From: Roseomonas haemaphysalidis
GTDB taxonomy: Bacteria > Pseudomonadota > Alphaproteobacteria > Acetobacterales > Acetobacteraceae
DNA length: 64,000 nucleotides
NCBI RefSeq assembly: GCF_017355405.1
Contig: NZ_CP061177.1
Span: 3,532,501 to 3,596,500, forward strand
Direction of reading: 5' to 3'
Shown: one piece after another, positions 28,016-51,646 of the stretch
How positions within the stretch are numbered: the stretch's first letter is position 1
Layout: the number at the start of each line of letters is the position of its first letter
Notes under the pieces: model-generated
Databases searched by the model: none
What the model saw: the letters and a program-made list of their open reading frames with translations, nothing else
Told to the model about the DNA's origin: nothing
Made by a program: the position numbers and the translations under genes

Positions 28016-28176
28016 AAGGCCGGGGAAGGAATTTCCCGGCCCCTCCCTTTGTTTCTGGAATTTCGGGCCACGGCCGGGCCGGCCGCGTGATCGGGCGCTC
28101 CGCCGTCGCGGCTGCCCCGGGAAAACAGACAGAAGAAAGATGGGGCTCGGGGGAACGCATCCCCCCTGGCTTTACC
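28016..28176. repeat. Long inverted repeat of the AATTCC terminator-like family
   Basis: Left arm AAGGCCGGGGAAGGAATTTC.. begins three bases after the aroKB stop. Right arm AACAGACAGAAGAAAGATGG.. to CCTGGCTTT ends at the stop codon of the convergent TPR gene. The arms are inverted copies. Each arm contains its own small palindrome followed by a pyrimidine tract, as in an intrinsic terminator. Confidence 0.7.
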
Positions 28177-29857
28177 GGCCGAACAACGCCCCCAGGAGCC
28201 GCCGCAGCCCGCCGGGGGCGGCCTCCTGCTCCGCCCCAGCCTGCGGCCTCGGCGTTTCCGGCGGCCCCATGCGGCGGGCGATGGCCTGCACGCGGGCGTC
28301 GTTGGGCAGGGCGGCGGCGGCGTCGGCCGCCACGTGGCGGGCTTGTTCCAGCCGGCCGGTGCGTTCCAGCACGCGGGCCATGCCGATATGCGCGGCGCCG
28401 ATCTGCGGGGCCAGCCGCAGGGCCTCGGCGAAATGCGGCTCGGCCTCGGCGGGCTCGCCCACCACCAGCAGCAGCTGGCCCAGCCAGATGCGGTGGCCGG
28501 CATCGGCCGGCGCCAGCTCCACCGCCTGCCGCACCAGCGCGATCGCTTCCGGCTGGCGGCCATAGGCGCCCAGCACATGGCTTTTGCCGACCAGGGCGCC
28601 GGCATGCTCGGGCACCTGGCTGAGCACGATGTCGAACTGGCTTTGCGCGGCTTCCAGCTTGGCGGCGTTCAGCAGCAGAAAGCCCAGGTGGATGTGCAGC
28701 CCGGCATCGCCCGGCGCCTGCCGGGTGCCCTGGGTGGCGATGTCGATGGCCTCGTCCAGGCGGCCTTTGGCGGCCACCACCATGCTCAGCCCCTGGTACA
28801 CGTGGCTGACGTCGCCGCGCAGCGCCAGGGCGGCGCGGAACGGCGCTTCCGCCGCCTCGCCCTCGCCGATGCCGACCAGCAGGTGGCCGATCTGCGCCTG
28901 CACCACGGCGTCGGCCGGGGATTCGGCGGCCTGCTGCAGGGCCAGGGCGCGGGCTTCCGGGCGGCGGCCCTTGTCGATCAGCCGGTGCATGGCGGGCGCC
29001 AGCAGGCGCATCACCTCCTGCTCGCGCAGGTTGCGGTGCAGCCCCAGCTGCTCGGCGCGGTTCCACAGCCGGTTGGCCAGGGCCGGGCGGTGGCGCAGAA
29101 AGGCGGTGTGGGCGACCCAGAAGAACCAGTGGACATTGCCGTGGCGCCGGGCCCGCAGCTCGCGCCGCAGCCCGTCCAGGTCGGCCGCCATGATGTGGTC
29201 GATCACCACGCGCAGAAAGGCCGTCTCGGTCAGCAGCCAGATGGCGGCGTGGCCGACGAACGGCGTGCGCAGCCATTGGATGCCGCCATCGGCCTGCAGC
29301 ATGCGGGCGTTGCGCAGGTCCTCGGGGTGGTAGGGGTCGGCCATCATGACGCCGAATTCCGGCGCCTCGGCGGCCGTCAGGCGCATGCCGGCATGCAGGG
29401 CGGGGTCGTGAAAGGCGTGGAAGCGCTGGTCGTCCGGCAGGTCGGCGGGGCTGATGCTGGCCTGCGGGCAAACGCCCAACGCGCGGCCCGCGCCCAGCAG
29501 GCGGGCATATTTCAGCGCGGCATAGCCGCCCATGCTGTAGCCGTAGCACAGCGCCGGCCCCGCCCCCAGCACGGCGCGCACCGCCGGCGCGGCGCGGGCG
29601 ACGGAGCTGGCGGGAAACCAGTTCTCCCGCTTGGCGACAAAGCCCACCACCGGCAGGCCGAGCCGGGCCGCGGGCTCCTGCGCCCACACGGCGCCGCCGT
29701 CCGGGCGAAAGGTCAGGTCGGCGAAGGTGACCAGGGTCAGGGGCGCCGCGCCGTCCTGAGGCGCGGCCGTGGCGGGGCGGTGGATGACAACGATCTCGGC
29801 ATCCTCGAACAGCACCACGCTGCCCGCCGGGGCAGGCGGGTGGTGGGCGGCGCTCAC
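28172..29857 (-). CDS. Alpha/beta-hydrolase-like domain with C-terminal TPR repeats
   Basis: 561 aa from a GTG at 29857. Residues ~1-260 look like an alpha/beta hydrolase: LTLVTFADLTFRPDG, the nucleophile elbow CYGYSMGGYAALKYARLLGA with Ser108, and a later FVGHAAIWLL. Residues ~300-540 carry about six TPR units (AVVQAQIGHLLVGIGEGEAAEAPFR, GLHIHLGFLLLNAAKLEAAQ, HRIWLGQLLLVVGEPAEAEPHF, AAHIGMARVLERTGRLEQA). TPR arrays mediate protein contacts. The GTG overlaps the bolA stop codon (GTGA), so the two are translationally coupled. No known function; related proteins occur near glycan or capsule genes, but none are here. Confidence 0.7.
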   Translation of the reverse strand: MSAAHHPPAPAGSVVLFEDAEIVVIHRPATAAPQDGAAPLTLVTFADLTFRPDGGAVWAQEPAARLGLPVVGFVAKRENWFPASSVARAAPAVRAVLGAGPALCYGYSMGGYAALKYARLLGAGRALGVCPQASISPADLPDDQRFHAFHDPALHAGMRLTAAEAPEFGVMMADPYHPEDLRNARMLQADGGIQWLRTPFVGHAAIWLLTETAFLRVVIDHIMAADLDGLRRELRARRHGNVHWFFWVAHTAFLRHRPALANRLWNRAEQLGLHRNLREQEVMRLLAPAMHRLIDKGRRPEARALALQQAAESPADAVVQAQIGHLLVGIGEGEAAEAPFRAALALRGDVSHVYQGLSMVVAAKGRLDEAIDIATQGTRQAPGDAGLHIHLGFLLLNAAKLEAAQSQFDIVLSQVPEHAGALVGKSHVLGAYGRQPEAIALVRQAVELAPADAGHRIWLGQLLLVVGEPAEAEPHFAEALRLAPQIGAAHIGMARVLERTGRLEQARHVAADAAAALPNDARVQAIARRMGPPETPRPQAGAEQEAAPGGLRRLLGALFGR

Positions 29858-30162
29858 GGGCGGCGGTCCGCCGCCGCGGCTTCTTCCGGTGTCAGCAGGC
29901 GCAGCGACAGGGCGTGCAGACCGCTGCCGAATTCGGCGTCCAGCAGGGCGTGCACGGCGCGCGAGCGCGCCACGCGGGACTGGCCGGCGAAGCCGGGGCT
30001 GACCACGCGCACGCTGTAATGCGTTTGTCCCCCCGGGGCGGCGCCAGCATGGCCGGCATGCAGGTGGCTGTCGTCTTGCACCAGGACCTCGGCGGGGGCG
30101 AGGCGGGCCTGCAGGAGGTCCTGGATGCGGTGGGCTCGAAGGCTGCTGTCGCGGGCGGTCAT
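29854..30162 (-). CDS. bolA: BolA family protein
   Basis: 102 aa. It has the BolA fold pattern: RIQDLLQARLAPAEVLVQDDSHLHAGHAG, then HYSVRVVSPGFAGQSRVARSRAVHALL. The conserved His residues in DDSHLHAGH are those used to share an iron-sulfur cluster with monothiol glutaredoxins. The adjacent J-domain gene and cobS-cobT form a neighbourhood often seen in alphaproteobacteria. ATG 30162 was chosen; the frame stays open upstream but the extension is Arg/Pro-rich. The downstream TPR gene overlaps its stop. Confidence 0.9.
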   Translation of the reverse strand: MTARDSSLRAHRIQDLLQARLAPAEVLVQDDSHLHAGHAGAAPGGQTHYSVRVVSPGFAGQSRVARSRAVHALLDAEFGSGLHALSLRLLTPEEAAAADRRP

Positions 30163-30313
30163 CGGGGTTCTTTTCCATGCCCCGCGCGCCCTGCCAAGCG
30201 AAAGCTGCGGCGTGGCCCTGGGGCGGCCGCATCGCGCGAAGGTCATGCGGCGGGCGGGAATTGCCGGGCTCTGCGCCTTGCGGCCCGGGGGATGCGGGAT
30301 CATAAGAGGTCGA

Positions 30314-30958
30314 ATGGCCCGTCGCGGCGAACGCTCCCGATTTGACCGATCCAACGCTCCCCCGTCCGGGCCGCCGTGCGATGCGCCGGGCTGCGAGGCG
30401 GTTGGCGAGTTCCGCGCGCCGCGCGACCGCTCCCGGCTGCGCGACTACTACCATTTCTGCCTGGAGCACGTCCGCGCCTACAACCAGGCGTGGGACTACT
30501 ACAAGGGCATGTCGCCCAACGAGATCGAAACCAACCTGCGCGACGATTCCGGCTGGCAGCGGCCGACCTGGCCGCTGGGGCGCCTGGGCAACACCAAGCT
30601 GAGCCCGGAAGCGTTCCGCGACCCCATGGGCCTGTTCGGCCAGGCGCCACCGACACCGCGCAAGAGCGCCAGGGAGGCGCCGCCGGAGCTGCGCGCCGCG
30701 CTGGACCTGCTGGGGCTCGGCTGGCCGCTTGAAGAATCCGCATTGCGGGCGAAGTACAAGGAACTCGCCAAGCGTTACCATCCCGACAGCAACGGCGGGG
30801 ACCGCTCCTTCGAGGAGCGGATGAAGGACATCAACCGCGCCTACAGCCTGCTGCGCAAGCGGCTGGCCGCCATGCCCGCCGAGGGCGCGGGCACGGATGG
30901 CGCCGCGGGTTCCGCCGCCGGCGGGCCTTCCCAACCGGCTTCCAGCAGGGCAGCCTGA
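30314..30958 (+). CDS. J-domain (DnaJ-like) protein
   Basis: 214 aa. Residues ~1-100 hold a short Cys-containing segment ([19 protein letters not shown]) and a well-conserved stretch [24 protein letters not shown] typical of the alphaproteobacterial DnaJ-like protein found next to cobS. The J domain is C-terminal (about 138-190): [20 protein letters not shown] with the HPD motif at 156-158, then [15 protein letters not shown]. It would stimulate an Hsp70. cobS starts 41 bases downstream on the same strand. Confidence 0.92.
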
Positions 30959-30999
30959 CCGCACGCCCGATCCGCGACACGACTTTCGAAGAGAGCCCG

Positions 31000-32007
31000 A
31001 TGAACAACGTCGCTACCCTCCCCGAGACCCGCAGCACCAACGCGATCAACATGCCGGACATCACGGTGAAGGTCCGCGAGGTCTTCGGCATCGACAGCGA
31101 CATGGAAGTGCCCGCCTTCTCGGTCACCACCGAGCACGTGCCGGAGCGGGACCCGACCTACCAGTTCGACCGCGACACCACGCTGGCGATCCTGGCGGGC
31201 TTCGCCTTCAACCGCCGCGTCATGGTCCAGGGCTACCACGGCACCGGCAAGTCCACGCATATCGAGCAGGTGGCGTCGCGCCTCAACTGGCCCTGCCTGC
31301 GCGTCAACCTGGACAGCCACATCAGCCGCATCGACCTGATCGGCAAGGACGCCATCGTCCTGAAGGACGGCAAGCAGGTCACGGAATTCCGCGAGGGCAT
31401 CCTGCCCTGGGCGCTGCAGCACCCCTGCGCCATGGTGTTCGACGAGTATGACGCCGGCCGCCCGGACGTGATGTTCGTGATCCAGCGCGTGCTGGAGGTC
31501 GAGGGCAAGCTGACGCTGCTGGACCAGAACAAGGTGATCCGCCCGCATCCGGGCTTCCGGCTGTTCGCCACCGCCAACACGGTGGGCCTGGGCGACACCA
31601 CCGGCCTGTATCACGGCACGCAGCAGATCAACCAGGGCCAGATGGACCGCTGGAACATCGTGGCGACCCTGAACTACCTGCCGCACGCGCAGGAAAGCAG
31701 CATCGTCGCCGCCAAGCTCGGCGTCGCTGCGGGCGACACGGCGGGCAAGAAGCGCATTGACGCCATGGTGGCGCTGGCCGACCTGACGCGCGCGGGCTTC
31801 ATCGCGGGGGACATCTCCACCGTCATGTCGCCGCGCACCGTGATCACCTGGGCGGAGAACACCCGCATCTTCGGGGACATCGGCTTCGCCTTCCGCGTGA
31901 CCTTCCTGAACAAGTGCGACGAGGCGGAGCGCGCCACGGTGGCCGAGTACTACCAGCGCTGCTTCAACGAGGAGATCCCGACCGGCCTGATGGTTCGCAA
32001 GAACTGA
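31000..32007 (+). CDS. cobS: Cobaltochelatase subunit CobS
   Basis: 335 aa AAA+ ATPase of the aerobic cobalt chelatase. With CobT and CobN it inserts Co2+ into hydrogenobyrinic acid a,c-diamide in B12 synthesis. Walker A is GYHGTGKS (78-85), Walker B is [10 protein letters not shown], sensor 1 is [11 protein letters not shown], and the arginine-finger region [11 protein letters not shown] is intact. The length and end are normal. cobT follows after 61 bases, which include a short GC-rich hairpin. cobN is not in the window. No cobalamin riboswitch was seen upstream. Confidence 0.97.
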
Positions 32008-32068
32008 GGTGCGGCCGGTGGGGGCACGTCCGCCCCCGCCGCATGGGATCGGCGCGGGAGAACAGTTG

Positions 32069-33937
32069 ATGAGCGGCACCAAGGACCAGACGCGCCAGGA
32101 AGAGTTCAAGCGCGCCACCGCCGGCGCCCTGCGGGCGATCGCCCGCAATGCCGAGGTGCAGGTCACCTACCAGCCCGGCCCGTCCGGCGTCGCCGGCAAG
32201 CGGGCCAGGCTGCCCCTGCCCACGCGCTCGCTGCCGCCGGCCGAGATGGCCCGGCTGCGCGGCGCCTCGGACGCCATCGCGCTGCGGCTCCGCCACCATG
32301 ACGAGGCGGCCCACGCCGCCCGCACGCCGCCCCGCCGCGAGGCGCGCGAGGTGTTCGACGCGCTGGAGCAGGCGCGGGTGGAGGTGGTGGGCAGCCGGCA
32401 CATGCCCGGCGTCGCCGCCAACCTGGACGCCAAGCTGGCCGAAACCTGCGAGGCCGAGGGCTATGACCGCATGACGCGCAAGGACCAGCTGCCGCTGACC
32501 GCGGCGCTGTCCCTGCTGGCGCGCGAGAAGCTGTCCGGCGAGCCGGCGCCCGCCGCCGCCAGCCGCGTGCTGGACCTGTGGCGCGACACGCTGGGCGAGA
32601 AGGCCGAGACCGCCCTGGCCGAGATGGCCCAGGCCAGCGAGGACCAGGACGCCTTCGCCCGCGCCGCCCGCAAGCTGCTGACCGCGCTGGATCTGGCCGA
32701 GGCCGAGGTCGAGGCGGAATCCGAGGAGGAGTCCGAGGGCGAGGATTCCGGCGAATCCTCCCCGCAGCAGGACAGCTCCACCGAGGGCGAAAGCCAGACG
32801 CAGGACAGCGAGCAGGCCATGGGCGCGCAGCCCGAGGCCATGCAGGGCGACGCCGCCGAGGAAGAGGGCGAGTCCGACGAGCAGGAAGGCGTCGCCGCCG
32901 AGGGCGAGGACCGCCCGGGCGGCCCGCAGCAGCGCAAGGAGGTGGCGCCGTCCGACGACGCCTCCGCCTACCGCCCCTTCACCAAGCAGTTCGACGAGGA
33001 GATCGAGGCGGAGGAGCTGTGCGACGCCGAGGAGCTGGCCCGCCTGCGCCAGCAGCTCGACCAGCAGCTCAGCCACCTGCAGGGTGTCGTGTCCAAGCTG
33101 GCCAACCGGCTGCAGCGCCGCCTCTTGGCGCAGCAGCAGCGCGCCTGGGAGTTCGACCTGGAGGAAGGCGTGCTGGACGCCGCCCGCCTGGCCCGCATCG
33201 TGGTCAACCCCATGCTGTCGCTGTCCTACAAGCGCGAGCGCGAGGCGGATTTCCGCGACACCGTGGTCACCCTGCTGATCGACAACTCCGGCTCCATGCG
33301 TGGCCGCCCCATCTCGGTCGCCGCCATGTGCTGCGACATCCTGGCCCGCACGCTGGAACGCTGCTCGGTCAAGGTGGAGATCCTGGGCTTCACCACCCGC
33401 GCCTGGAAGGGTGGCCAGTCGCGTGAGCGCTGGGTGCAGGAAGGCAAGCCGCGCAACCCCGGCCGCCTGAACGACCTGCGCCACGTGATCTACAAGTCCG
33501 CCGACGCGCCCTGGCGCCGGGCCCGCAAGAACCTGGGCCTGATGCTGCGCGAGGGACTACTCAAGGAGAACATCGACGGCGAGGCGCTGGACTGGGCGTA
33601 TCGCCGCCTGCGCAACCGCCCCGAGAAGCGCCGCATCCTGATGGTGGTCAGCGATGGCGCGCCGGTGGACGACAGTACGCTCTCGGTCAACCCGGGCAAC
33701 TACCTGGAGCGCCACCTGCGCAAGGTGATCGCCGAGATCGAGCAGCGCGAGGCGGTGGAGCTGATCGCCATCGGCATCGGCCACGACGTGACGCGCTACT
33801 ACCGCCGCGCCGTGACCATCGTGGACGCCGAGGAGCTGGGCGGCACCATGATGAAGAAGCTGGCCGAGCTGTTCGACGAGGATGCCGCCGCGGCCTATCA
33901 GCGCGCGGCGACCGAGCGGGCGCCCGCCATCGCCTGA
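32069..33937 (+). CDS. cobT: Cobaltochelatase subunit CobT
   Basis: 622 aa from ATG 32069. CobT partners CobS as a two-ring AAA+/VWA complex that drives CobN. The N-terminal AAA-like half leads to a strongly acidic region (about residues 210-310, rich in Glu/Asp/Ser/Gln, for example [19 protein letters not shown]). The C-terminal von Willebrand A domain has a complete [16 protein letters not shown] with Asp405, and later [11 protein letters not shown]. It is cotranscribed with cobS. No sign of truncation. Confidence 0.96.
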
Positions 33938-34018
33938 CCTGCTGGCGCGGAAGGGGCCCTGCCCTTCCCGGCCCGCGCCCCTCCCCGTCTCGGTGACACC
34001 GGCAAAGGAAGCGACTGG

Positions 34019-35023
34019 ATGACGCGCGGGCGCGGGGGATCGCGTCCCCTGCCTGGGGGCGCGGTGCCCCTTCCAAGGCCGCAGGCCCCACGCCGCCTTG
34101 CCCTGGCCCTGCTCGCCTCCGGCCTGCTGGCCGCCTGCGCGCCGCCGCACGGCCCGCCCGCCACGCCCCTGCCCCCCTTGCCCTTGCCCGCCGCCCATCC
34201 GTTGCGATCGCTGGGCGGGCTGCTCCTGAACCGCGACGTGATCGGCTTCGGGGGCCTGTCCGGGCTGCATGTGGACGACAACCTGCGGCTGACCGCGATC
34301 AGCGATACCGGTCGCTGGCTGCGGGCGCGACTGGTGCTGGACGAGGCCGGCCACCCACAGGGGCTGGCGGAGCTGGAAAGCGGACCGCTGTCGGATGGGC
34401 TGCCGATCAGCCTGCCGGGCCGCTTCTCGGTGGATGCCGAATCCCTGGCGCGCCTGCCCGACGGGCGCTTTCTGGTGGGGTTCGAACGCTGGCACCGCAT
34501 CCGCGCCTATGACGGCATCAGCAGCTGGGGCGAACCCGTGGAGGCCCCGCCCGGCCTGTCCGCCGCGCCGCTGAACGCCAGCCTGGAAAGCCTGGCCGTG
34601 CTGGCCGATGGCCGCTGGCTGGTGATCACGGAGGGGCTGGAACACGCCCCTGGCCTGCTGCGCGGCTGGGTGGGCGCCCCTGGTGCCTGGACGCCCCTCG
34701 CCTTCCGTCCCACCCCGGGCTTTCTGCCGACGGACCTGACCCCCCTGCCCGATGGCGGTGCGCTGCTGGTGGAGCGGCGGTTCAACGTCTGGGAACGCGG
34801 CTTCAGGGGCCGGCTGCTGCGCATTCCCCCGGAACGGCTGGCCGCGCTGACAGCCGGCAGCGTGCTGGCCGGCGACGTGCTGCTGACCGAGGCGGAGTTG
34901 CCGCGGGAGAACTGGGAAGGCGTCAGCACCTTCGCCTGGCAGGGCCGCCGGCTGGTGGCCATGGTGACGGACGACAACGAGTTCTTTTTGCAGAAAGGCC
35001 TGCTGCTCCTGTTCAGCTTCTGA
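34019..35023 (+). CDS. Phytase-like esterase domain lipoprotein
   Basis: 334 aa. After a Pro/Arg-rich start, a signal sequence ends in LLAAC, a good lipobox. The mature part matches the esterase-like-phytase (PF13449) beta-propeller pattern: NRDVIGFGGLSGLHVDDNLRLTAISDTGRWLRA, FSVDAESLARLPDGRFLVGFER, and NWEGVSTFAWQGRRLVAMVTDDN near the end. Its substrate is unknown. The first ~24 codons are encoded by sequence resembling local intergenic repeats (GCGCGGGGGATCGCGTCCCC), so the true start may be further downstream at a non-ATG codon near the signal core. Confidence 0.8.
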   Translation: MTRGRGGSRPLPGGAVPLPRPQAPRRLALALLASGLLAACAPPHGPPATPLPPLPLPAAHPLRSLGGLLLNRDVIGFGGLSGLHVDDNLRLTAISDTGRWLRARLVLDEAGHPQGLAELESGPLSDGLPISLPGRFSVDAESLARLPDGRFLVGFERWHRIRAYDGISSWGEPVEAPPGLSAAPLNASLESLAVLADGRWLVITEGLEHAPGLLRGWVGAPGAWTPLAFRPTPGFLPTDLTPLPDGGALLVERRFNVWERGFRGRLLRIPPERLAALTAGSVLAGDVLLTEAELPRENWEGVSTFAWQGRRLVAMVTDDNEFFLQKGLLLLFSF

Positions 35024-35141
35024 TCATCGGTTTCATCAAATATTTGTTATATTACGAGATATCACCAATGTTTACGGTGCATCGCACTTGACCCTGGCAG
35101 CTCGATGCTTGGTTATAGGTCTTCTTTGATAGAGAAAAGAA
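35024..35141. other. AT-rich gap before the transferred acyltransferase
   Basis: Base composition drops sharply right after the phytase-like stop codon (ATCAAATATTTGTTATATTA near 35036-35055). TTGACC at 35088-35093 and TTATAG at 35113-35118 could form a promoter, but the 19-bp spacing is poor. No direct repeat or attachment site was recognised here. Confidence 0.35.
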
Positions 35142-36311: not shown

Positions 36312-36314
36312 CAG

Positions 36315-37188: not shown

Positions 37189-37213
37189 CCTGAAGCCAGG
37201 AAACCGGGGTTCC

Positions 37214-43653: not shown

Positions 43654-43767
43654 CGCTTATAAGGCGGGCGGCGATTCCTGGGAACGACCCCGGTGTTCAT
43701 GCTTCGTTCAAGCCACCTGCGGCAGGATGCCCGCCGCCCCGCCCCGGGGCCGAAGGAGCATGACAAG

Positions 43768-44049
43768 ATGTCTGTCCCCCCCATGCCTGCCCCGCCGTCC
43801 CCTGACGACAGCGGCTGGGCGGCCGCCGCCGGCCAGCTCAGCCTGGCGCTGCAGCCGCCCGCCTGGCCGAGTTTCGCGCCGGATGCCGCGGCGCCCCCGC
43901 TGGTGGTGATCGGCCACGACTACACCGGGCCGGGTCCGGCCGGCGACGTGGACAAGGCCTGGACCACCGGCCTGCCGGCGGATGATCCGTTTCTGCGCCT
44001 GCTGGCCGGGCTGGCACAGGGCACGCCGGACGCCGTCTGGCTCGGCTGA
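43768..44049 (+). CDS. Small hypothetical protein
   Basis: 93 aa from ATG 43768 with AAGGAG eleven bases upstream. The sequence is Pro/Ala-rich at the start (MSVPPMPAPPSPDDSGW) and ends in a more regular part (PPLVVIGHDYTGPGP, FLRLLAGLAQGTPDAVWLG). I do not recognise the family. It lies divergent from the histidine phosphatase gene and upstream of the metallophosphatase gene on the same strand. Confidence 0.5.
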   Translation: MSVPPMPAPPSPDDSGWAAAAGQLSLALQPPAWPSFAPDAAAPPLVVIGHDYTGPGPAGDVDKAWTTGLPADDPFLRLLAGLAQGTPDAVWLG

Positions 44050-44122
44050 GGCGCCAGGCGCGGTCACGCAACACGCCGGCCGGCTCTGGCGCCGGCGCGC
44101 GGCACGGTGTTTTCTCCAGCCG

Positions 44123-44851
44123 ATGCCCGCGCCCAAGCTGCTTCTCGCCCCCGCCGCCCTGCCCCCCGGTCTGCGGGTTTATGCGATCGGCGACGTGCAT
44201 GGCTGCGCGATGCGGCTGGCGGCGCTGCATGCCGCCATCGCGGCGGACTGGGCGGCCTGGCCTGCGGCCCGCGCGGCGGTGGTGCATCTGGGCGACTACG
44301 TGGACCGGGGGCCGGACAGCCCCGGCGTCCTGGCGCGCATCGCGGCTCCGCCGCCGGTCGCGGGCGCCGAATCGGTGGCGCTGCGCGGCAATCACGAGGC
44401 GATGATGCTGGACGCGCTGGCCCCGGGCGCCACGCCGGCGGCGCGGGAGCACTGGCTGCGCAATGGCGGCCGCACCACGCTGCGCGACTTCGGCGGCGCG
44501 GTGCCGGATGCGGTGCTGGCGCAGCTGCGCGCCCTGCCCTTGTTCTGGCAGGCCGGCGGCTACCGCTTCGTGCATGCCGGGGTGGACCCGTGCCGCGGCT
44601 GGGCCGCGCAACGGGAACAGGATCTTCTGTGGATGCGCGAGCCCTTTCTGTCCTGGCCCACAGCGCTGGACGCGGTCTACGTGCACGGCCACACCCCGGC
44701 GGCGGAACCCGAGGTCTGCGGCCACCGCATCGGCATCGACACCGGCGCGGTGGGCGGCGGCGCGCTGACCGCGCTGGTGCTGGAAGGCGACGGTCTGCGC
44801 TTCCTGCAGGCCCTGCCCGGCACCCCCGCAACGAGCCTGTCTTGCGCCTGA
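44123..44851 (+). CDS. Calcineurin-type metallophosphatase (PrpA/PrpB-like)
   Basis: 242 aa. All motifs of the bacterial PPP family are present in order: AIGDVHGC (23-28), VVHLGDYVDRGPDS, LRGNHEAMML, VHAGVDP and VHGHTPAAEP, with IDTGAVGGG before the end. These bind a two-metal centre and dephosphorylate proteins or small phosphates. The length fits serine/threonine phosphatases of this class. It ends 27 bases before hldE and may be cotranscribed with it. Confidence 0.9.
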   Translation: MPAPKLLLAPAALPPGLRVYAIGDVHGCAMRLAALHAAIAADWAAWPAARAAVVHLGDYVDRGPDSPGVLARIAAPPPVAGAESVALRGNHEAMMLDALAPGATPAAREHWLRNGGRTTLRDFGGAVPDAVLAQLRALPLFWQAGGYRFVHAGVDPCRGWAAQREQDLLWMREPFLSWPTALDAVYVHGHTPAAEPEVCGHRIGIDTGAVGGGALTALVLEGDGLRFLQALPGTPATSLSCA

Positions 44852-44878
44852 GGCCAGGGCTGCGCTAGGCCGTTGGCG

Positions 44879-46399
44879 ATGCAAGGCGACAGGCCCCCTG
44901 GCGATCCGGCGTTCCCGCCCGAGCTGCCATCCTTCCCCGTGACCGAAACCACCGGCCCCGACCTGGCCGAGGCGGTGCGGCAGCTGCGCCGCGCCTCCGT
45001 GCTGGTGGTGGGCGACGCCATGCTGGACCGCTACGTCTACGGTGTGGTCCGCCGCATCAGCCCCGAAGCGCCGGTGCCGATCCTGGCCGTGGACCGCGAG
45101 GTGGCGATGCCCGGCGGCGCCGGCAACGTGGTGCGCAACCTGACCGCCCTGGGCGCGGCCGTGGCCTTTCTGTCCGTGGTGGGCGACGACCAGGCGGGCA
45201 GCGACCTGACCGGGCTGATCGGCGGCCAGCCGGGCGTCGAGCCCTGGCTGCTGGTGCAGGGCGGCCGGGCGACCACCAGCAAGACGCGCTACATCGCCTC
45301 CGGCCAGCAGATCATGCGCGCCGACCATGAGATTTCCCGCGCCATCCATGAGCGGCTGGCCGACCGGCTGGTGCGCATCGCGGCCGACACGGTCGCGGCC
45401 TGCTCCGTGATGGTGCTGTCGGACTACAACAAGGGCGTGCTGGCGGGCGAGGTGCCGGCCCGGCTGATCGCCGCCGCGCGCGCCGCCGGCCGCCGCGTGG
45501 TGGTGGACCCCAAGGGCCACGACTACAACCGCTATGCCGGTGCCGACATCGTCACCCCCAACCGGGGCGAGCTGGCCCAGGCCACCGGCATGCCGGTGGA
45601 CACGGAACAGGAGATCGTGCTCGCTGCCCGCGCGCTGCGCGAGGCGCACGGCTTCGGTGCCGTGCTGGTGACGCGCAGCGAGGACGGCATGACGCTGCTG
45701 GACGGCGACGCGCTGCACCACTTCCCGGCCGAGGCGCCGGAGGTGCACGACGTGTCCGGCGCCGGCGACACGGTGGTGGCGGTGCTGGCGGCGGGCCTCG
45801 CCTCCGGGCTGGCGCTGCCGGTGGCGGCGCGGCTGGCCAACATCGCGGGCGGGCTGGTGGTCGGCAAGGTCGGCACCGCCGTGGCGCGCGAGAACGACCT
45901 GCTGGAAGCGCTGACGCCCGAGCGCGGCACCTTGCGCAAGGTGATGCGCCGCGCTTCCGCGGCCGAGCAGGTGGAGCGCTGGCGGCAGCGCGGCTGGCGC
46001 GTCGGCTTCACCAACGGCTGCTTCGACCTGCTGCACCCCGGCCACGTGCACCTGCTGGAGCAGGCGAGGAGCTGGTGCGACCGGCTGGTGGTGGGCGTCA
46101 ATGCCGACAGCTCGGTCAAGCGCCTGAAGGGCCCGTCCCGCCCCATCCAGCCCGAGGCCGCGCGCGCCGCCGTGCTGGCCTCGCTGTCCACCGTGGACCT
46201 CGTGACCGTGTTCGACGAGGACACGCCCGTGGAGCTGATCCGGCTTTTGCGGCCCGATGTGCTGGTCAAGGGGGCGGACTACACCGTGGCCCAGGTGGTG
46301 GGCGGTGAGCTGGTGCAGGAATGGGGCGGCGTGGTGAAGCTGGCCGAGTTGCTGCCGGGCAATTCCACCACCGCCACCGTCGCCCGGATGCGCGGCTGA
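44879..46399 (+). CDS. hldE: Heptose-7-phosphate kinase/heptose-1-phosphate adenylyltransferase
   Basis: 506 aa from ATG 44879. It supplies ADP-heptose for the lipopolysaccharide core. The PfkB-type kinase half (about 30-350) shows VVGDAMLDRYVYGVVRRISPEAPVP, PGGAGNVVRNL and the catalytic VSGAGDTVVAVLAAG. The nucleotidyltransferase half (about 370-506) shows FTNGCFDLLHPGHVHLLEQA and DTPVELIRLLRPDVLVKG. Both halves look complete. The short extra N-terminus is family-variable. dgt begins 12 bases downstream. Confidence 0.95.
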   Translation: MQGDRPPGDPAFPPELPSFPVTETTGPDLAEAVRQLRRASVLVVGDAMLDRYVYGVVRRISPEAPVPILAVDREVAMPGGAGNVVRNLTALGAAVAFLSVVGDDQAGSDLTGLIGGQPGVEPWLLVQGGRATTSKTRYIASGQQIMRADHEISRAIHERLADRLVRIAADTVAACSVMVLSDYNKGVLAGEVPARLIAAARAAGRRVVVDPKGHDYNRYAGADIVTPNRGELAQATGMPVDTEQEIVLAARALREAHGFGAVLVTRSEDGMTLLDGDALHHFPAEAPEVHDVSGAGDTVVAVLAAGLASGLALPVAARLANIAGGLVVGKVGTAVARENDLLEALTPERGTLRKVMRRASAAEQVERWRQRGWRVGFTNGCFDLLHPGHVHLLEQARSWCDRLVVGVNADSSVKRLKGPSRPIQPEAARAAVLASLSTVDLVTVFDEDTPVELIRLLRPDVLVKGADYTVAQVVGGELVQEWGGVVKLAELLPGNSTTATVARMRG

Positions 46400-46410
46400 C
46401 GCCGGTGGCC

Positions 46411-47724
46411 ATGGACTGGGGCGCGCTGTTCAACACCGGGCGCTTCCCCGACCGCCCGGCGCGCGACGACCCCGGCCGCAACCCCTTCCAGATCGACCAG
46501 GACCGCATCGTCTTTTCGCGCCCCTTCCGGCGGCTGCAGCAGAAGACCCAGGTGCACACCATGATCGGCAACGCCCATGTGCGGAACCGGCTGGTGCACA
46601 CGCTGGAGGTGGCCTCCATCGGCCGCTCGATCGGCTTCGGCGTCGGTGCCGCGCTGCGACAGGACCTCGCCGCCGCCGGGCGCACGCCGGACGACCTCGG
46701 CTACCTCGTGCAGGCGGTGTGCCTGGCGCATGACATCGGCAACCCGCCCTTCGGCCATGCCGGCGAGGAGGTGATCGGGCATTTCATGGCCGAATGGCTG
46801 GACCACGGCCCGGGCCGGGACCTGGCGCTCGACGACGACCTGCGCTTCTTCGATGGCAACGCCCAGGGCTTCCGCATCCTGACGCGGGCGGATGGCTACC
46901 GCGAGCGCGGCGGGCTGCGGCTGACCTTCGCCAGCCTGGGCGCCTTTATCAAGTATCCCTGGTCGGCGGCGGATGCACGGGCCGCGCGGCGCGGCGTGCC
47001 GGGCGTGAAGTTCAACCACTTCGCCACGGAAGCCGAGGGCTTCGCCGCCGTGGCGCGCGAATGCGGCCTGTCCGGCCCCCTGCCCCGCCACCCCGCCGTG
47101 TGGCTGATGGAGGCCGCCGACGACATCACCTACGGGCTGGCCGACATGGAGGATGCCGTGGAGCTCGGCATCGTGTCCTTTGATCGCTACGCCGCGCTGG
47201 TCAAGCCGCTGGCCCAGGTGACGGATGCGCGCATCGCCGACGAGGACGGCGAGCAGCAGAAGATCGCGCTGCTGCGCTCGGCCGCCGCCGGCACCATGAT
47301 CCGCGCTTCCATCGATGCCTTTCGCGAATGGACCCCGGCCCTGCTGGGCGGCGCGCAGCCACCGGGCAAGGGCCTGCCGGACCTGTTGCCGGCCGAGGTG
47401 CGCGAGCCCTTCGCGGCGCTGGCGCGGGCCAACAGCGACACGCTCTACATGCATCCGCGCAAGGTGCAGTTCGAGATCGGCGCGCGGGACGTGCTGGAAA
47501 AGACGCTGGGCGTGTTCCTGGAAGCCAGCCTCGCCTTCGTGCAAGTGGATGGCGACGAGGAAAAGCTGCCGCTGCGCGCGCAGCAGGCGCTGGTGCTGAT
47601 GCAGGACTACCGCCCCCGCCGGAGCTTTTCCGCCAGCGAGACGCTGCGCTGCGCCATCGACTTCGTGGCCGGCATGACGGACGACTACGCCGCCACGCTG
47701 GCCGCCCGGCTGCGCGGCCTTTAG
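46411..47724 (+). CDS. dgt: dGTP triphosphohydrolase-like HD-domain protein
   Basis: 437 aa from ATG 46411. It releases triphosphate from dGTP or other dNTPs, controlling nucleotide pools. The HD metal site is visible: RNRLVHTLEVASIGRSIG (first His), QAVCLAHDIGNPPFGHAGEE (His-Asp) and later EAADDITYGLADMEDAVELG (Asp). The N-terminal RNPFQIDQDRIVFSRPFRRLQQKTQV is diagnostic of the family. It follows hldE by 12 bases and overlaps the end of a convergent lipoprotein gene. Confidence 0.93.
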   Translation: MDWGALFNTGRFPDRPARDDPGRNPFQIDQDRIVFSRPFRRLQQKTQVHTMIGNAHVRNRLVHTLEVASIGRSIGFGVGAALRQDLAAAGRTPDDLGYLVQAVCLAHDIGNPPFGHAGEEVIGHFMAEWLDHGPGRDLALDDDLRFFDGNAQGFRILTRADGYRERGGLRLTFASLGAFIKYPWSAADARAARRGVPGVKFNHFATEAEGFAAVARECGLSGPLPRHPAVWLMEAADDITYGLADMEDAVELGIVSFDRYAALVKPLAQVTDARIADEDGEQQKIALLRSAAAGTMIRASIDAFREWTPALLGGAQPPGKGLPDLLPAEVREPFAALARANSDTLYMHPRKVQFEIGARDVLEKTLGVFLEASLAFVQVDGDEEKLPLRAQQALVLMQDYRPRRSFSASETLRCAIDFVAGMTDDYAATLAARLRGL

Positions 47725-48176
47725 CGGCCCACTGGCTCCATCCGCACCACCGCCGGCGGCGGCGGCACGACGGCCGGCACCGGCTGGCGCAGGCAGCCGC
47801 GCACGATGGGCGCGCACACGCCGTCCTGGCCGCCCACGTCGTCGTTGTCGCCGGTGTAGTTCAGCCCGATCACGCGCCCCTGCGCCACGCGGAACAGCGC
47901 GTGGCAATAGCTGCCGCTGTTGCCGGTGGTGAAGCCGCCCAGCACCGGGATCTCGATGTTCAGGCCGCCGGTGTTGGCGTTCTTCTGCTCGTAGGACAGC
48001 AGTTCCGTGCCATCGCCCAGCGTGCTGCGGCGGGTCGGGATGCCGGCGCAAGATTGCAAGTCGTTCACGTCCATGCCCACCAGCCGCTGCTTTCCCTGTT
48101 CCGCCACGCGGGCCCCGGGCGAGGTGCAGGCCGCCGCCGCCAGCAGCAGCAGGGGCATCCATCGGCGAAGGGTCAT
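47721..48176 (-). CDS. Hypothetical lipoprotein
   Basis: 151 aa from ATG 48176, chosen because AGGAG lies six bases upstream; ATG 48191 would add five residues. The signal sequence MTLRRWMPLLLLAAAAC ends in a lipobox. The mature part contains DVNDLQSCAGIPTRRSTLGDGTELLSYEQ, reminiscent of small SmpA-like outer membrane lipoproteins that begin with a similar capture motif, and later SYCHALFRVAQGRVIGLNYTG. The final part is Pro-rich. Function unknown. Confidence 0.7.
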   Translation of the reverse strand: MTLRRWMPLLLLAAAACTSPGARVAEQGKQRLVGMDVNDLQSCAGIPTRRSTLGDGTELLSYEQKNANTGGLNIEIPVLGGFTTGNSGSYCHALFRVAQGRVIGLNYTGDNDDVGGQDGVCAPIVRGCLRQPVPAVVPPPPAVVRMEPVGR

Positions 48177-48464
48177 CGGCGCTCCTGTCATGCATTAAGG
48201 GGCGGCAATTGGGGTCCCGGGCGGGCGGATGGAACCCCTGACTCCGGGCTTGACGCCGTTTGGGCGCGGGTTCATGGCAGCCGCGCGGCACCCGGTCCCT
48301 GCGGTCCGGCGCCGCTCCCAGGAACCCCGATCACCATGCCCAGCGCCAGTCCAACCGACAGTCATAGTCGACGGTCCGCGCCTTCCGCGGCCCTGCGCTG
48401 ATCCGGCCCTGAGCGGCCGGCTCGCCGCGTGGCCCCGCCCGGCGCGGACGCCCCGAGGTGAGCC
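48177..48464. other. Gap between divergent lipoprotein and mgtE genes
   Basis: About 290 bases between divergent starts. It is GC-rich with no credible gene. TTGACG near 48250 could be a -35 element for mgtE. GAGGTG just before 48465 is the mgtE ribosome site. I looked for a magnesium (M-box) type leader and did not recognise one. Confidence 0.35.
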
Positions 48465-49829
48465 ATGTACGACCTGCTGCCCCCCACCGCCGCCTTCGGC
48501 GCGGCGCCCCACCCCTGCGCGACCGGCCACATCGCCGACCTGGTCGAGCACATCAACGACCTGCCCGACGCCGAGGCCTCGGCCCTGCTGGCCACCCTGC
48601 CGGCCGAGCGCGCGGTGGAGCTGTTCGACAGCCCGGAGCTGAACCGCGCCGGCGGCCTGCTGCTGTCGCTGCCCGCGCCGGCCGCCACGGCGCTGCTGGC
48701 CGGCATGTCCGCCGACCGCGCGGCCGACGTGCTGCGCCTGCTGGGGCGCGACACCCAGGCCACGCTGCTGCGGCCCCTGGAGCCGGAGCCCGCCGGCGCG
48801 CTGAAGCGCCTGCTGGCCTGGCCCGAGCACAGCGCCGGCAGCCTGATGACCACGGAATTCGTCAGCCTGCCCAGCACCGTCACGGTGGCCGAGGCGCTGG
48901 CGCATATCCGCGCCGTGGAACGCACGCGGGAAACGATCTACGCGCTGTACCTGCTGGACCCGCGCAGCCAGGCGCTGGTGCGCACCATCTCGCTGCGCCG
49001 GCTGATCATGGGCGAGCCGGGCGACCGCGTGCTGGACCTCGCCCTGCCCCGCCCGCCCGTGACCGTCTCGGCCGAAACCGACCGCACGGATGTCGCGCGG
49101 CTGTTCGCGCGGCACGACCTGCTGGCGGTGCCGGTGGTGGATGCGCGCGGCCACGTGCTGGGCATCGTCACGGTGGATGACGTGATCGACGCCATCGTGG
49201 ACCAGGGCACCGAGGACACACACCGCTTCGGCGGCATGGAGGCGGTGGACAAGCCCTACCTGCGCATCGGCTTCGGGGAGATGCTGCGCAAGCGCGCCGG
49301 CTGGCTGTGCGTGCTGTTCCTGTCGGAGATGCTGACGGCCAGCGCCATGCAGCACTTCGAGGCGGAGCTGGAAAAGGCCATCGTGCTGACGCTGTTCATC
49401 CCGCTCATCATGAGCAGCGGCGGCAATTCCGGCTCCCAGGCCACCTCGCTGCTGATCCGCGCCCTGGCGCTGGGGCAGGTGAAGCTGGGCGACTGGTGGC
49501 GCGTGGCGCTGCGCGAGCTGCCGACCGGGCTGGCGCTGGGCGCAATCCTGGGCGTGCTGGGCATGGGGCGGATCGCGCTGTGGCAGCAGCTCGGCATCTA
49601 CGACTACGGCGAGCACTGGGTGCTGGTGGCGCTGACGGTGGGGCTGGGGCTGATCGGCATCGTGCTGTTCGGCTCCATGGCGGGCTCGATGCTGCCGTTC
49701 CTGCTGAAGCGCGTGGGCTTCGACCCGGCCAGTGCCTCGGCGCCTTTCGTGGCCACGCTGGTCGATGTGACGGGGCTGGTGATCTATTTCAGCGTGGCGC
49801 TGGCCGTGCTGCGTGGGACGCTGCTGTAA
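48465..49829 (+). CDS. mgtE: Magnesium transporter MgtE
   Basis: 454 aa, full family length. The cytosolic MgtE_N superhelix (about 20-130) is followed by two CBS domains (about 135-255, EHSAGSLMTTEFVSLPSTVTVAEALAHIR and LLAVPVVDARGHVLGIVTVDDVIDAI), which gate the channel by sensing magnesium. A five-segment pore domain follows (VLTLFIPLIMSSGGNSGSQATSLLIRALA). The GGNSGSQ motif and ATLVDVTGLVIYFSVA near the C-terminus are the family signatures that line the ion path. Functions as a homodimer in the inner membrane. Confidence 0.96.
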   Translation: MYDLLPPTAAFGAAPHPCATGHIADLVEHINDLPDAEASALLATLPAERAVELFDSPELNRAGGLLLSLPAPAATALLAGMSADRAADVLRLLGRDTQATLLRPLEPEPAGALKRLLAWPEHSAGSLMTTEFVSLPSTVTVAEALAHIRAVERTRETIYALYLLDPRSQALVRTISLRRLIMGEPGDRVLDLALPRPPVTVSAETDRTDVARLFARHDLLAVPVVDARGHVLGIVTVDDVIDAIVDQGTEDTHRFGGMEAVDKPYLRIGFGEMLRKRAGWLCVLFLSEMLTASAMQHFEAELEKAIVLTLFIPLIMSSGGNSGSQATSLLIRALALGQVKLGDWWRVALRELPTGLALGAILGVLGMGRIALWQQLGIYDYGEHWVLVALTVGLGLIGIVLFGSMAGSMLPFLLKRVGFDPASASAPFVATLVDVTGLVIYFSVALAVLRGTLL

Positions 49830-49831
49830 GG

Positions 49832-49977
49832 AAAGGCCAGGGAAGGAATTCCCCGGACCCCTTCTTTTCTTTTTGCCAGTCTCCGGATGCGCTTTCAGGC
49901 ACCCGGTGCGCCCTTTCAACAAGCGGCAGCAGACAGAAAAAAGATGGGGGCTCGGGGGAATTCCTTTCCCCGACCTT
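49832..49977. repeat. Long inverted repeat of the AATTCC terminator-like family
   Basis: Left arm AAAGGCCAGGGAAGGAATTC.. starts two bases after the mgtE stop and runs into TTCTTTTCTTTTT. Right arm GCAGACAGAAAAAAGATGGG.. ends in CCCCGACCTT. The arms are near-complete inverted copies around a ~60-base centre. The left arm alone forms GGGGAA-loop-TTCCCC followed by a T-rich tract, an intrinsic terminator for mgtE. Confidence 0.75.
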
Positions 49978-50035
49978 CTCCTCGCTCCCCGCCCATGGAA
50001 CGCTGCCGGTTCTGAACACGACAAGGACTCGGACA

Positions 50036-50221
50036 ATGCCCGAAATCATGGTCTTCGCCGCCGCCGGCCGCACCGTGGAGCAGAAGCGCGGCCTAGCGCG
50101 CGACCTGACGGAAGCGATGGTCAAGAACTTCGGCGTGCCAGCCGAGTCCGTGACGGTGCAGATCGTGGAATCCGCCCTCGACTCCAAGGCCAAGGGCGGG
50201 GTGCTGTTCAGCGACCGCTGA
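50036..50221 (+). CDS. 4-oxalocrotonate tautomerase family protein
   Basis: 61 aa from ATG 50036, the normal size for this family of tiny hexameric enzymes. Pro2 becomes the catalytic amino-terminal proline after Met removal. The pattern PEIMVFAAAGRTVEQKRGLARDLTEA, NFGVPAESVTVQIVE and KGGVLFSDR is typical. Substrate unknown; no aromatic catabolism genes are near. Its 3' end overlaps the convergent asd gene by 14 bases. Confidence 0.88.
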   Translation: MPEIMVFAAAGRTVEQKRGLARDLTEAMVKNFGVPAESVTVQIVESALDSKAKGGVLFSDR

Positions 50222-51269
50222 GCAGCCGCTCGGCGATCTGCACGGCGTTCAGCGCCGCGCCCTTCAACAGCTGGTCGCCGGCCACGAACATCGCCAGCGA
50301 GCGGCCGGACGGGTCGCCCAGGTCGGTGCGCAGGCGGCCGACCAGCACGTCGTCCTGGCCGCTGGCTTCCGACGGCATGGGGAAGTGGTTGCGGGCGCGG
50401 TCGTCGACCAGCCGCAGGCCGGGCGCGGCTTCCAGCAGGCGGCGGGCTTCCTCGACGCTCACCACCTCGTCGAACTCCACGGTCAGCGCCATGGCGTGGG
50501 CGCGCAGCACCGGCACGCGGATGCAGGTAATGCCGATGGGCAGCTCCGCCGCGCCCAGGATGCGGCGGGTTTCGGCGATCACCTTGGTTTCCTCGCCGTT
50601 GTAGCCGCTGGCCTCGTCCATCTCCGCGTTGTGGCTGAACAGGTTGAAGGCGTAGGGGTGCGGCAGGACCTTGGGCTCGAAGCTCTCGCCCTGCAGAGAG
50701 GCGGCGGTGGAAAGGCGCAGTTCCTCCATCGCGGCGGCGCCGGCGCCGGAGGCGGCCTGGTAGGTGGCGGCCTGCAGGCGGCGGATCGGGTGCGCACGGT
50801 GCAGCGGCGCCAGGGCCACGGTCGCGATGGCGGCGACGCAGTTGGGGTTGGCGACGATGCCGCGATGCTGCGCCAGGGCGGCGGCGTTCACCTCCGGCAC
50901 CACCAGCGGCACCTCGGGGTCCATGCGGAAGGCGGAGGAATTGTCCACCACCACCGCGCCAGCCTTCACAGCCGCCGCCGCATAGCGCTTGGAGATGCCG
51001 GAGCCGGCCGAAAACAGCGCGATGTCCACGCCCTCGAAGCTGTTGTCGTCCAGCGCCTCGACGCCGATGTCCTTACCCCGGAAATGCATGGTCTTGCCGG
51101 CCGAGCGCGGCGAGGCCAGCAGCTTCAGGCGGGACAGCGGGAAGCCGCGTGCTTCCAGGCAGCCCAGCAGTTCCACGCCCACGGCGCCGGTGGCGCCGAC
51201 AATGGCGACGACGGGGCTGGCGGCGGTCACGCGGCGGAATTCGGCGGGGGCGTCGAGGGTGGTGCTCAT
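50208..51269 (-). CDS. asd: Aspartate-semialdehyde dehydrogenase
   Basis: 353 aa from ATG 51269; an ATG 18 bases upstream is in frame but lies inside the leader hairpin. It reduces aspartyl phosphate to the semialdehyde, the branch point to lysine/diaminopimelate, threonine and methionine. NADP loop GATGAVG (25-31), active-site Cys144 in NPNCVA and the later FPMPSEASGQDDVLVGR are intact. The gene is preceded by a structured leader with a short Thr/Ile-rich ORF (51366-51443), pointing to control by amino acid supply. Confidence 0.96.
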   Translation of the reverse strand: MSTTLDAPAEFRRVTAASPVVAIVGATGAVGVELLGCLEARGFPLSRLKLLASPRSAGKTMHFRGKDIGVEALDDNSFEGVDIALFSAGSGISKRYAAAAVKAGAVVVDNSSAFRMDPEVPLVVPEVNAAALAQHRGIVANPNCVAAIATVALAPLHRAHPIRRLQAATYQAASGAGAAAMEELRLSTAASLQGESFEPKVLPHPYAFNLFSHNAEMDEASGYNGEETKVIAETRRILGAAELPIGITCIRVPVLRAHAMALTVEFDEVVSVEEARRLLEAAPGLRLVDDRARNHFPMPSEASGQDDVLVGRLRTDLGDPSGRSLAMFVAGDQLLKGAALNAVQIAERLLSGR

Positions 51270-51270
51270 G

Positions 51271-51301
51271 GTCTCTCGTCCGTTCATGGACCGGGAGAGA
51301 C
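51271..51301 (-). promoter_or_regulatory. Hairpin covering the asd ribosome-binding site
   Basis: On the minus strand GTCTCTC (51295-51301) pairs with GAGAGAC (51271-51277), reinforced by GTCC/GGAC inside. The right strand of this stem ends one base before the asd start codon and contains the only Shine-Dalgarno-like sequence (GAGAG). Folding would hide the ribosome site. Confidence 0.6.
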
Positions 51302-51310
51302 GGGCGCCGT

Positions 51311-51400
51311 GTCCGGCGGGCCCCGTCCGTCTCCGGCGGGGCCTTCTGGTGCTATTCCGCGGCGGTCACCGCGCAGACACCAGAGGACGCCCCGCCGGAG
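51311..51400 (-). promoter_or_regulatory. Alternative hairpins in the asd leader
   Basis: Segment A (51390-51400) lies inside the short leader ORF. It can pair over 11 bp with segment B (51331-51341), extended by CACCAG/CTGGTG (51378-51383 with 51346-51351). Nine bases of A can pair instead with segment C (51312-51320). B and C are near copies, so the two folds exclude each other, as in attenuators. Confidence 0.55.
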
Positions 51401-51443
51401 CGGTCGTCTTGGTAATGCGCTTGATGATGATCGTCGCGAACAT
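51366..51443 (-). CDS. Candidate leader peptide upstream of asd
   Basis: 25-codon ORF on the minus strand from ATG 51443 to TGA 51366. It begins MFATIIIKRITKTT, so codons 4-14 contain four Thr, four Ile and two Lys. This is the composition of leader peptides that control Thr/Ile pathway genes by ribosome stalling. The ORF ends inside segment A of the leader hairpins. No good Shine-Dalgarno precedes it, which weakens the call. Confidence 0.45.
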   Translation of the reverse strand: MFATIIIKRITKTTAPAGRPLVSAR

Positions 51444-51503
51444 GGGGCGGAGGCTTAGCCAGGGGCGCGCGGGGGCGTCAATCGGAATTCAGTGCAGAAA
51501 CAG

Positions 51504-51646
51504 AAAGGCCGGGGGAAGGAATTGCCCCGGACCCCCATCTTTTTTCTTTCCGTTCCCACGCATCCGCCTGCTCGGCGCACCCGCTTCACGGGCGGCAAAC
51601 AGACAGAAAGAAACGAAGGGGTCCGGGGAATTCCTTCCCCGGCCTT
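51504..51646. repeat. Long inverted repeat of the AATTCC terminator-like family
   Basis: Left arm AAAGGCCGGGGGAAGGAATTGC.. and right arm AACAGACAGAAAGAAACGAA.. to CCCCGGCCTT are inverted copies. The right arm ends three bases before the mmcB stop codon (minus strand). On the minus strand the arm nearest mmcB forms GGGGAA-TTCCCC followed by TTCGTTTCTTTC, placing a terminator right after mmcB. Confidence 0.72.

What the first reader, a model, noticed from the sequence alone, without database searches (positions are those of the whole stretch)
28016..51646. Family of long intergenic inverted repeats whose arms look like terminators
Three full copies (28016-28176, 49832-49977, 51504-51646) and one half copy (21205-21256) share the same arms: AAGGCCGGGGAAGGAATTCC-type on one side and AACAGACAGAAAAAAGATGG-type leading to the reverse complement on the other. 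Each full copy begins or ends within about three bases of a stop codon (aroKB, the TPR gene, mgtE, mmcB). Each arm alone forms GGGG-AA-loop-TT-CCCC followed by a T-rich tract, so one copy can terminate transcription on both strands. The centres differ, the arms are conserved. This suggests a spread repeat element used as a portable bidirectional terminator, not chance structure.
Basis: seen in the sequence. Interest (0 to 1): 0.7.

Follow-up and report, generated by a model that had tools for sequence, protein, structure and literature searches.

The report
Dispersed repeat with double terminator arms
A short DNA repeat, present in more than a hundred copies in this bacterium, sits almost flush against gene stop codons and looks like a ready-made transcription stop sign for both DNA strands.

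Summary
The three full copies and a weak half copy belong to a large dispersed family: 112 arm pairs and 15 single arms in 538 kb of this genome, an element-centred sample. An even sample of the main contig holds 17 pairs in 400 kb, roughly 160 on that contig. Each arm is a covarying hairpin followed by a T-rich tract pointing inwards. Edges lie a median 4 bp from flanking stop codons; none of 110 scored copies is centred in a called gene. Presence differs between species at matching places, while arms change less than centres. At one place the arms enclose different genes in two species. Arms occur in 15 of 16 congeners and patchily in the family. No target-site duplication excess and no REP-type transposase were found. 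Best reading: a MITE-like repeat whose ends are intrinsic terminators, a portable bidirectional terminator. Termination is inferred, not shown: start-side arms are kept equally well, the whole copy folds best arm to arm, and a simple scan misses the inward arms.

The parts
28015..28172 (.). Full copy 1, between convergent aroKB (stop ends 28013) and a gene without family match (its minus-strand stop begins at 28172 in + coordinates); arms 28015-28062 (+) and 28126-28172 (-)
49832..49977 (.). Full copy 2, directly after mgtE (stop ends 49829) and 58 bp before the tautomerase gene start; arms 49832-49879 (+) and 49930-49977 (-)
51505..51647 (.). Full copy 3, directly after mmcB (minus strand, gene end at 51650) and upstream of a semialdehyde dehydrogenase gene; arms 51505-51552 (+) and 51600-51647 (-)
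21209..21255 (-). Weak solitary arm (half copy), about 110 bp upstream of a PPIC-type peptidyl-prolyl isomerase gene; not next to a stop codon
   Evidence: (23.5 bits, E 0.0025)
26292..28013 (+). aroKB fusion (shikimate kinase + 3-dehydroquinate synthase), upstream neighbour of copy 1
48465..49829 (+). mgtE, upstream neighbour of copy 2
51650..52120 (-). mmcB-like gene, upstream neighbour (minus strand) of copy 3

Best explanation
It is a family of short dispersed repeats, 90-242 bp (median 154) among 112 pairs of this genome and about 128 bp in a set from two relatives, with AAGG...CCTT ends. Each end is a self-contained intrinsic-terminator-like arm: hairpin AAGGYC-GGGGG-AA[NGAA]TT-CCCCC, then GRA-CCCCC and a T-rich tract pointing inwards. 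When RNA polymerase leaves a gene it meets the arm a few bases after the stop codon; the nascent RNA folds the hairpin and transcription stops in the T tract. The opposite arm does the same on the other strand, so one copy insulates both neighbours. SHOWN from sequence: a dispersed family, pair architecture, flush position at stop codons, stem covariation, presence/absence between species, arms changing less than centres. INFERRED: that transcription ends there, and that the local hairpin forms during transcription before the longer arm-to-arm fold can. UNKNOWN: how copies move; no target-site duplication excess and no REP-type transposase were found.
For: At least 150 arms in the genome. 112 pairs and 15 singles in 538 kb held, an element-centred sample in which '+ then -' was the pairing rule; without that rule all 42 adjacent pairs among the first 150 hits were +/-. 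Stop sides: median 4 bp; 114 of 140 lie between 30 bp of overlap and 10 bp of spacer, 92 of 140 with 0-10 bp; 0 of 110 centred in a called ORF. Stop-to-stem distance 12 nt or less in 118 of 140, including 13 in which the stop lies inside the arm. In tandem gene pairs the stop gap is smaller than the start gap in 54 of 58. In the evenly spaced sample 8 of 56 convergent gene gaps hold a copy or single arm against 11 of 302 others (Fisher p 0.004). Stem covariation: 23 cells changed on both sides against 6.9 in shuffles on an alignment not fitted to the structure; 119 against 40.1 on 150 arms fitted to it. Four orthologous arms of G003/G012 show paired stem changes (by eye). In genus g44 the hairpin and the stop-proximal place recur with another T-rich tail, TTCTTTTATTTTTG; over three genomes of two genera the stop-side median is 3 bp, n=16. 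Arms of one copy are no more alike than shuffled arms, so long arm-to-arm pairing is not what is kept. Polarity relative to genes looks random, 8 same and 11 opposite.
Against: No transcript data. The lowest-energy fold of whole copies 2 and 3 is one long arm-to-arm hairpin, not two local ones. Start-side arms, where no gene ends, score as well as stop-side arms (45.8 vs 43.7 bits, p 0.52; T content equal), though their hairpins are slightly weaker (p 0.027). 11 of 110 copies lie between divergent genes. Pairing is less regular elsewhere: 21 of 41 hits in G003 and 26 of 44 in G012 were pairs, and 7 of 24 in three genomes of other genera with this profile. The T tract starts several bases after the stem; over 46000-54000 the simple scan finds 4 sites (3.0 in shuffles), none an inward arm of copies 2 or 3 and one an outward reading of copy 2's left arm. 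Two of five covariation measures did not exceed shuffles (pairs with double change 366/500, pair types 116/500); all did. About 1 in 7 convergent gaps holds a copy, so it is not the genome's general terminator. The correlated length of the two C runs (rho 0.61, n=189) is not explained by a plain hairpin.
Confidence: 0.7

Rival explanations
1. A selfish MITE-like repeat for which termination is incidental: an unknown enzyme moves the unit, and copies survive only where they hurt least, just after stop codons.
For: Common ends and full-length similarity of 33 copies of 100-160 bp in G003/G012, with centre identity of at least 0.75 in 20 of 528 pairs and 0 in shuffles (16 of the 33 come from G012 loci fetched because they matched). 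Site differences between species. Start-side arms kept equally well. Copies between divergent genes.
Against: No target-site duplication excess in 110 own or 43 relative copies. No Y1 transposase in own genome and one weak fragment among 17 genomes of the genus. Stems are held by covariation, and arms change less than centres at orthologous sites, which a decaying selfish repeat would not need. T-rich tails persist in another genus.
Confidence: 0.17
2. An mRNA 3'-end stabiliser like REP hairpins: the hairpin blocks 3'-5' exonucleases after Rho- or otherwise terminated transcription.
For: GC-rich hairpin directly after stop codons. E. coli REP hairpins stabilise 3' ends without terminating (PMC13289151, passages).
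Against: The T-rich tract after the hairpin recurs across arms and, re-worded, in another genus, which a pure exonuclease block does not need.
Confidence: 0.08
3. A DNA-uptake or other DNA-level recognition sequence that happens to sit in terminators, as in Neisseria and Haemophilus.
For: Inverted pairs of a repeated sequence next to stop codons, with different wordings in different genomes. The precedent is described in PMC1852404 (passages).
Against: About 160 pairs on the main contig by extrapolation against generally 1,000 or more copies for uptake signals. Conservation follows base pairing, not only sequence. Competence genes were not examined.
Confidence: 0.03

Closest known systems
REP / BIME elements with RAYT transposases
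   Same: Hairpin repeats, often two opposed with unrelated spacers, extragenic, high copy, species-specific (PMC2817692, passages)
   Different: No Y1 transposase in own genome; arms begin AAGG, not the GTAG-type starts of the table passage seen; arms carry a T-rich tail facing inwards
DNA uptake signal pairs acting as terminators (Neisseria, Pasteurellaceae)
   Same: Repeated sequence in inverted pairs whose hairpins are used as terminators (PMC1852404, passages)
   Different: There one pair of signals makes one hairpin; here each arm is its own hairpin and the pair makes two opposed ones. Fewer copies; uptake untested
Bidirectional intrinsic terminators between convergent genes
   Same: Would terminate both strands in a convergent gap
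   Different: Ordinary ones are single hairpins (recalled; compare G012 at the L244:17407 site); here a dispersed repeat supplies two. Ju et al. 2019 was seen only as a reference entry
MITEs (MITEAba12 from a listing; ERIC-type repeats recalled)
   Same: Short, terminal inverted repeats, mostly without room for a gene, polar unit in relatives
   Different: No target-site duplication excess; the terminal repeats are terminator-like hairpins; no parent transposon identified (not searched beyond PF01797)

Membership tests
REP/BIME (RAYT-mobilised) | RAYT / Y1_Tnp (PF01797) transposase in the genome | tested here: not met
   0 in own genome; 1 weak fragment among 17 genomes of the genus, in G006; control genomes rang in 5 of 14
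REP/BIME (RAYT-mobilised) | REP hairpin with 5' GTAG-type start, opposed pairs | tested here: not met
   Opposed pairs yes, but arms start AAGG
MITE | Short unit with terminal inverted repeats, many copies, common ends | tested here: met
MITE | Target-site duplications | tested here: not met
   Direct repeats of 6 or more bp: 6 of 110 own copies vs 7.3 in shuffles; 4 of 43 relative copies vs 5.4. One G003 copy absent from G012 shows an 8-bp flank repeat by eye
MITE | Parent transposon with the same ends | not tested
   No search for a transposase between matching arms was made beyond PF01797
Intrinsic (Rho-independent) terminator | GC-rich hairpin under pairing constraint | tested here: met
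   three of five measures; all five
Intrinsic (Rho-independent) terminator | U-tract immediately after the stem | tested here: inconclusive
   About 9.6-9.7 T in the 20 nt examined, mean longest run 4.7-4.9, but offset by a CCCCATC-type spacer; the simple scan finds no inward arm of copies 2 and 3
Intrinsic (Rho-independent) terminator | RNA 3' ends at the site | not testable with these tools
   No RNA data
DNA uptake sequence | Very high copy number (generally 1,000 or more) | tested here: not met
   17 pairs and 4 singles in 400 kb, about 160 pairs on the main contig by extrapolation
DNA uptake sequence | Promotes uptake of DNA | not testable with these tools
   Needs transformation assays
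Any Rfam family | Match at gathering score | tested here: not met
   0 matches in the window

The most novel reading that the evidence does not exclude
A 'terminator transposon': a mobile unit whose two ends are intrinsic terminators, which settles flush behind stop codons without duplicating its target, can stand in for a local terminator, and carries exchangeable cargo between its arms (different small genes at one place in two sister species). Its hairpins a median 6 nt behind stop codons would also mean that these Acetobacteraceae transcribe ahead of their ribosomes.
Probability: 0.28. Interest if true: 0.8.

Novelty: new variant of a known kind. Interest (0 to 1): 0.6.

Why it matters
It would be a dispersed repeat that brings its own pair of terminators, so that insertion between genes is tolerated or even useful, and would help explain how a GC-rich genome renews its transcript ends. 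Terminator hairpins a few nucleotides from stop codons (median 6 nt here) have been used as a proxy for transcription running ahead of translation (Johnson et al. 2020 as described in PMC7858274, passages), so Term-seq in one Pseudoroseomonas strain would test that question in an alphaproteobacterium directly. The arms are also candidate parts for insulating genes in GC-rich hosts.

Tried and rejected
Long cruciform or long hairpin as the structure under selection: it is the lowest-energy fold of copies 2 and 3, but arms of one copy are not more alike than shuffled arms (22.17 vs 23.12, sd 0.41), so rejected as the thing kept. The slightly lower value fits a polar unit with distinct left and right arms; in this genome that signal is weak (r -0.25, permutation p 0.007; by sign 45 copies are of opposite type and 65 of the same type).

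Arm-arm gene conversion within copies: rejected on the same figures. REP/RAYT origin: rejected. Target-site duplication: no excess. Bistable switch (G run pairing with either C run) as reason for the matched C-run lengths: the alternative fold is much weaker (median -10.8 vs -18.4 kcal/mol; as good or better in 14 of 214 arms), so not adopted; the correlation stays unexplained and may reflect sub-families. Phage link: no match. A hairpin-distance comparison with other hairpins mixed near and far arms and was not used. Print searches: in the open PMC library; the listings seen (partial) held no description of this repeat. Most subscription papers are not held there.
Full report
WHAT IS THERE. 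The window is G000:C1:3532501-3596500 of a 4.9-Mb, 8-contig genome. Its relatives are Pseudoroseomonas (Roseomonas sensu lato, Acetobacteraceae), judged by the four closest named mgtE relatives, three of them Pseudoroseomonas. The three full copies and a weak solitary arm were found at the stated places. Copy 1 lies between aroKB and a convergent gene without a known family, copy 2 after mgtE, copy 3 after mmcB.

ANATOMY. Reading from the outside in, an arm is AAGGYC-GGGGG-AA-NGAA-TT-CCCCC-GR, then R-CCCCC-[A/T]TC and a T-rich stretch ending CTGTCTG in many arms of this genome. The stem varies with paired changes: 23 cells against 6.9 in shuffles on 26 arms aligned without structure, where two of the five measures did not exceed shuffles; 119 against 40.1 on 150 arms aligned to the model, where all five did. 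Copies are pairs of arms with T tracts facing inward: 42 of 42 adjacent pairs among the first 150 hits; with that as the rule, 112 pairs plus 15 mostly weak singles in the 538 kb held. Length is 90-242 bp, median 154. Centres are mostly unrelated (52 of 6216 pairs similar). As whole RNAs, copies 2 and 3 fold best as one long arm-to-arm hairpin, but arms within a copy do not match each other better than shuffled arms.

NUMBER. An even sample of 20 stretches of 20 kb on the main contig holds 17 pairs (one only 75 bp long) and 4 singles, which extrapolates to about 160 pairs on that contig.

PLACE. Of 112 pairs, 110 could be scored: 58 in tandem, 41 convergent, 11 divergent, none centred in a called gene; gaps without a copy in the same loci were 254, 45 and 58. 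My gene caller is a simple codon-usage one. Stop sides: median 4 bp; 114 of 140 between 30 bp of overlap and 10 bp of spacer, 92 with 0-10 bp. Start sides: median 54 bp, n=80. Stop-to-stem distance is 12 nt or less in 118 of 140; in 13 of these the stem start lies before the end of the stop codon, and 9 stop sides lie at -20 to -15, the place of the TGA in an AATGAATT loop (loop placement read by eye). The set is element-centred; in the even sample 8 of 56 convergent, 9 of 246 tandem and 2 of 56 divergent gene gaps hold a copy or single arm (convergent against the rest p 0.004).

EVOLUTION. A stricter family-wide scan, with at most 50 candidates scored per genome, found arms in 12 of 120 genomes, with high numbers only in own, G007 and the two g44 genomes. 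At the aroKB site five congeners keep what reads as the same neighbour without a copy (G001, with ten bases between the two stop codons, G002, G007, G013, G015; neighbour judged by eye); G010 and G011 share a copy; G004 has one further downstream. At the mgtE site P. aerophila keeps the tautomerase neighbour without a copy. A 340-kb stretch of G001, syntenic in part with the region of 15 own copies, has no arm at E<=0.01; at one site its genes overlap (ATGA) where the own genome has a copy between them. Between G003 and G012, about 90% identical, 18 of 41 G003 copies or arms had the matching place held: 11 shared, 5 absent, 2 partial (my reading of that table and); 23 had no ortholog held. At one absent place G012 has a simple, different hairpin after the same stop. 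In nine shared sites picked from these, arms are 87% identical at ungapped columns with 54 gap columns in 891; in the six of them with short centres, centres are 82% with 177 gap columns in 421. Paired stem changes were seen by eye at four arms; other stem changes there are unpaired. At L246:14722-15377 and L258:13290-14147 the same two arms hold unrelated cassettes of 560 and 762 bp: G003 has a 123-aa frame without a known family, G012 a 188-aa frame with a GNAT acetyltransferase domain (NCBIfam hits of the latter are far below their cut-offs).

UNIT. In G003 and G012, 33 copies of 100-160 bp align end to end with common ends, unrelated flanks and distinct left and right arms. A profile of that unit covers 100 of 112 own pairs end to end, though the arms dominate the score. 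Pairs are 21 of 41 hits in G003, 26 of 44 in G012 and 7 of 24 in G059, G145 and G043. No duplication of the target is seen in excess, and no Y1 transposase.

HOW IT WORKS. Position, direction, hairpin constraint and T-rich tail make termination of both incoming transcripts the most likely role. The tail is re-worded but still T-rich in genus g44 (TTCTTTTATTTTTG), as a U tract under selection could be. Weak points: no RNA data, start-side arms equally kept, divergent copies, many single arms in relatives, offset of the T tract. One possible reason for kept start-side arms is a need to stop antisense transcription; another is that the unit spreads whole. The hairpin starts a median 6 nt after the stop codon, a place a coupled ribosome would cover; such short distances have been used as a sign of transcription outrunning translation (PMC7858274, passages).

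COMPARISON. Nearest are REP/BIMEs (PMC2817692, passages), uptake-signal terminators (PMC1852404, passages), MITEs (listing) and families of stem-loop repeats (PMC2267715, passages). It fails the transposase test for REPs and the duplication test for MITEs, and it has no Rfam match. It would work like a bidirectional terminator and is dispersed like a MITE or BIME; I file it as a new variant. Named public plasmids: three Pseudoroseomonas cervicalis records hold parts of it; phages none.

Noticed in passing
window 16358-16560 (nested hairpin 16483-16507); also L058:4392-4600, L092:4764-4960, L071:4180, L079:4234, L081:4319, L090:4075: A second dispersed family with a like layout (inverted pair about 200 bp; hairpin GGGGTGG..CCACCCC, GGACCCC..TTCTG), commonly about 40 bp from a stop codon, often with a further GGCCAGGGGG..CCCCCTGG hairpin outside. 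Seven sites in 538 kb match the pattern, both arms at three.
   Followed up: partly
G003 L246:14722-15377 and G012 L258:13290-14147: The same two arms enclose different cassettes in two sister species: a 123-aa frame without known family and a 188-aa GNAT acetyltransferase-like frame; short cassette ends look alike.
   Followed up: partly
arms of the own genome: Length of the stem's C run correlates with that of the C run just after the hairpin (rho 0.61, n=189). Alternative pairing is energetically weak and arm-arm pairing does not explain it; other hairpins in relatives show similar doublets by eye.
   Followed up: partly
G000:C1:2.19-3.35 Mb: No copy in 7 of 20 even stretches here (17 pairs in the other 13), and none of the 150 listed arm hits between 2.25 and 3.06 Mb; dnaA is at C1:667. 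Region chosen after seeing the data.
   Followed up: partly
centres in L044, L059, L063, L078, L079, L099: A nested palindrome (CGCCGGAGGTC..GACCTCCGGCG type) sits in several otherwise unrelated centres, in both orientations.
   Followed up: no
G003 L241:5983-6110 and L243:17838 to L244 (joined C4 17838-18023): A different palindrome (ATCGRACG..CGTYCGAT) is inserted inside the right arm's G tracts in two copies.
   Followed up: no
window 50036-50221 and 50208-51269: The tautomerase gene, which starts 58 bp after copy 2, and the semialdehyde dehydrogenase gene overlap tail to tail by 14 bp, leaving no room for a terminator between them.
   Followed up: no
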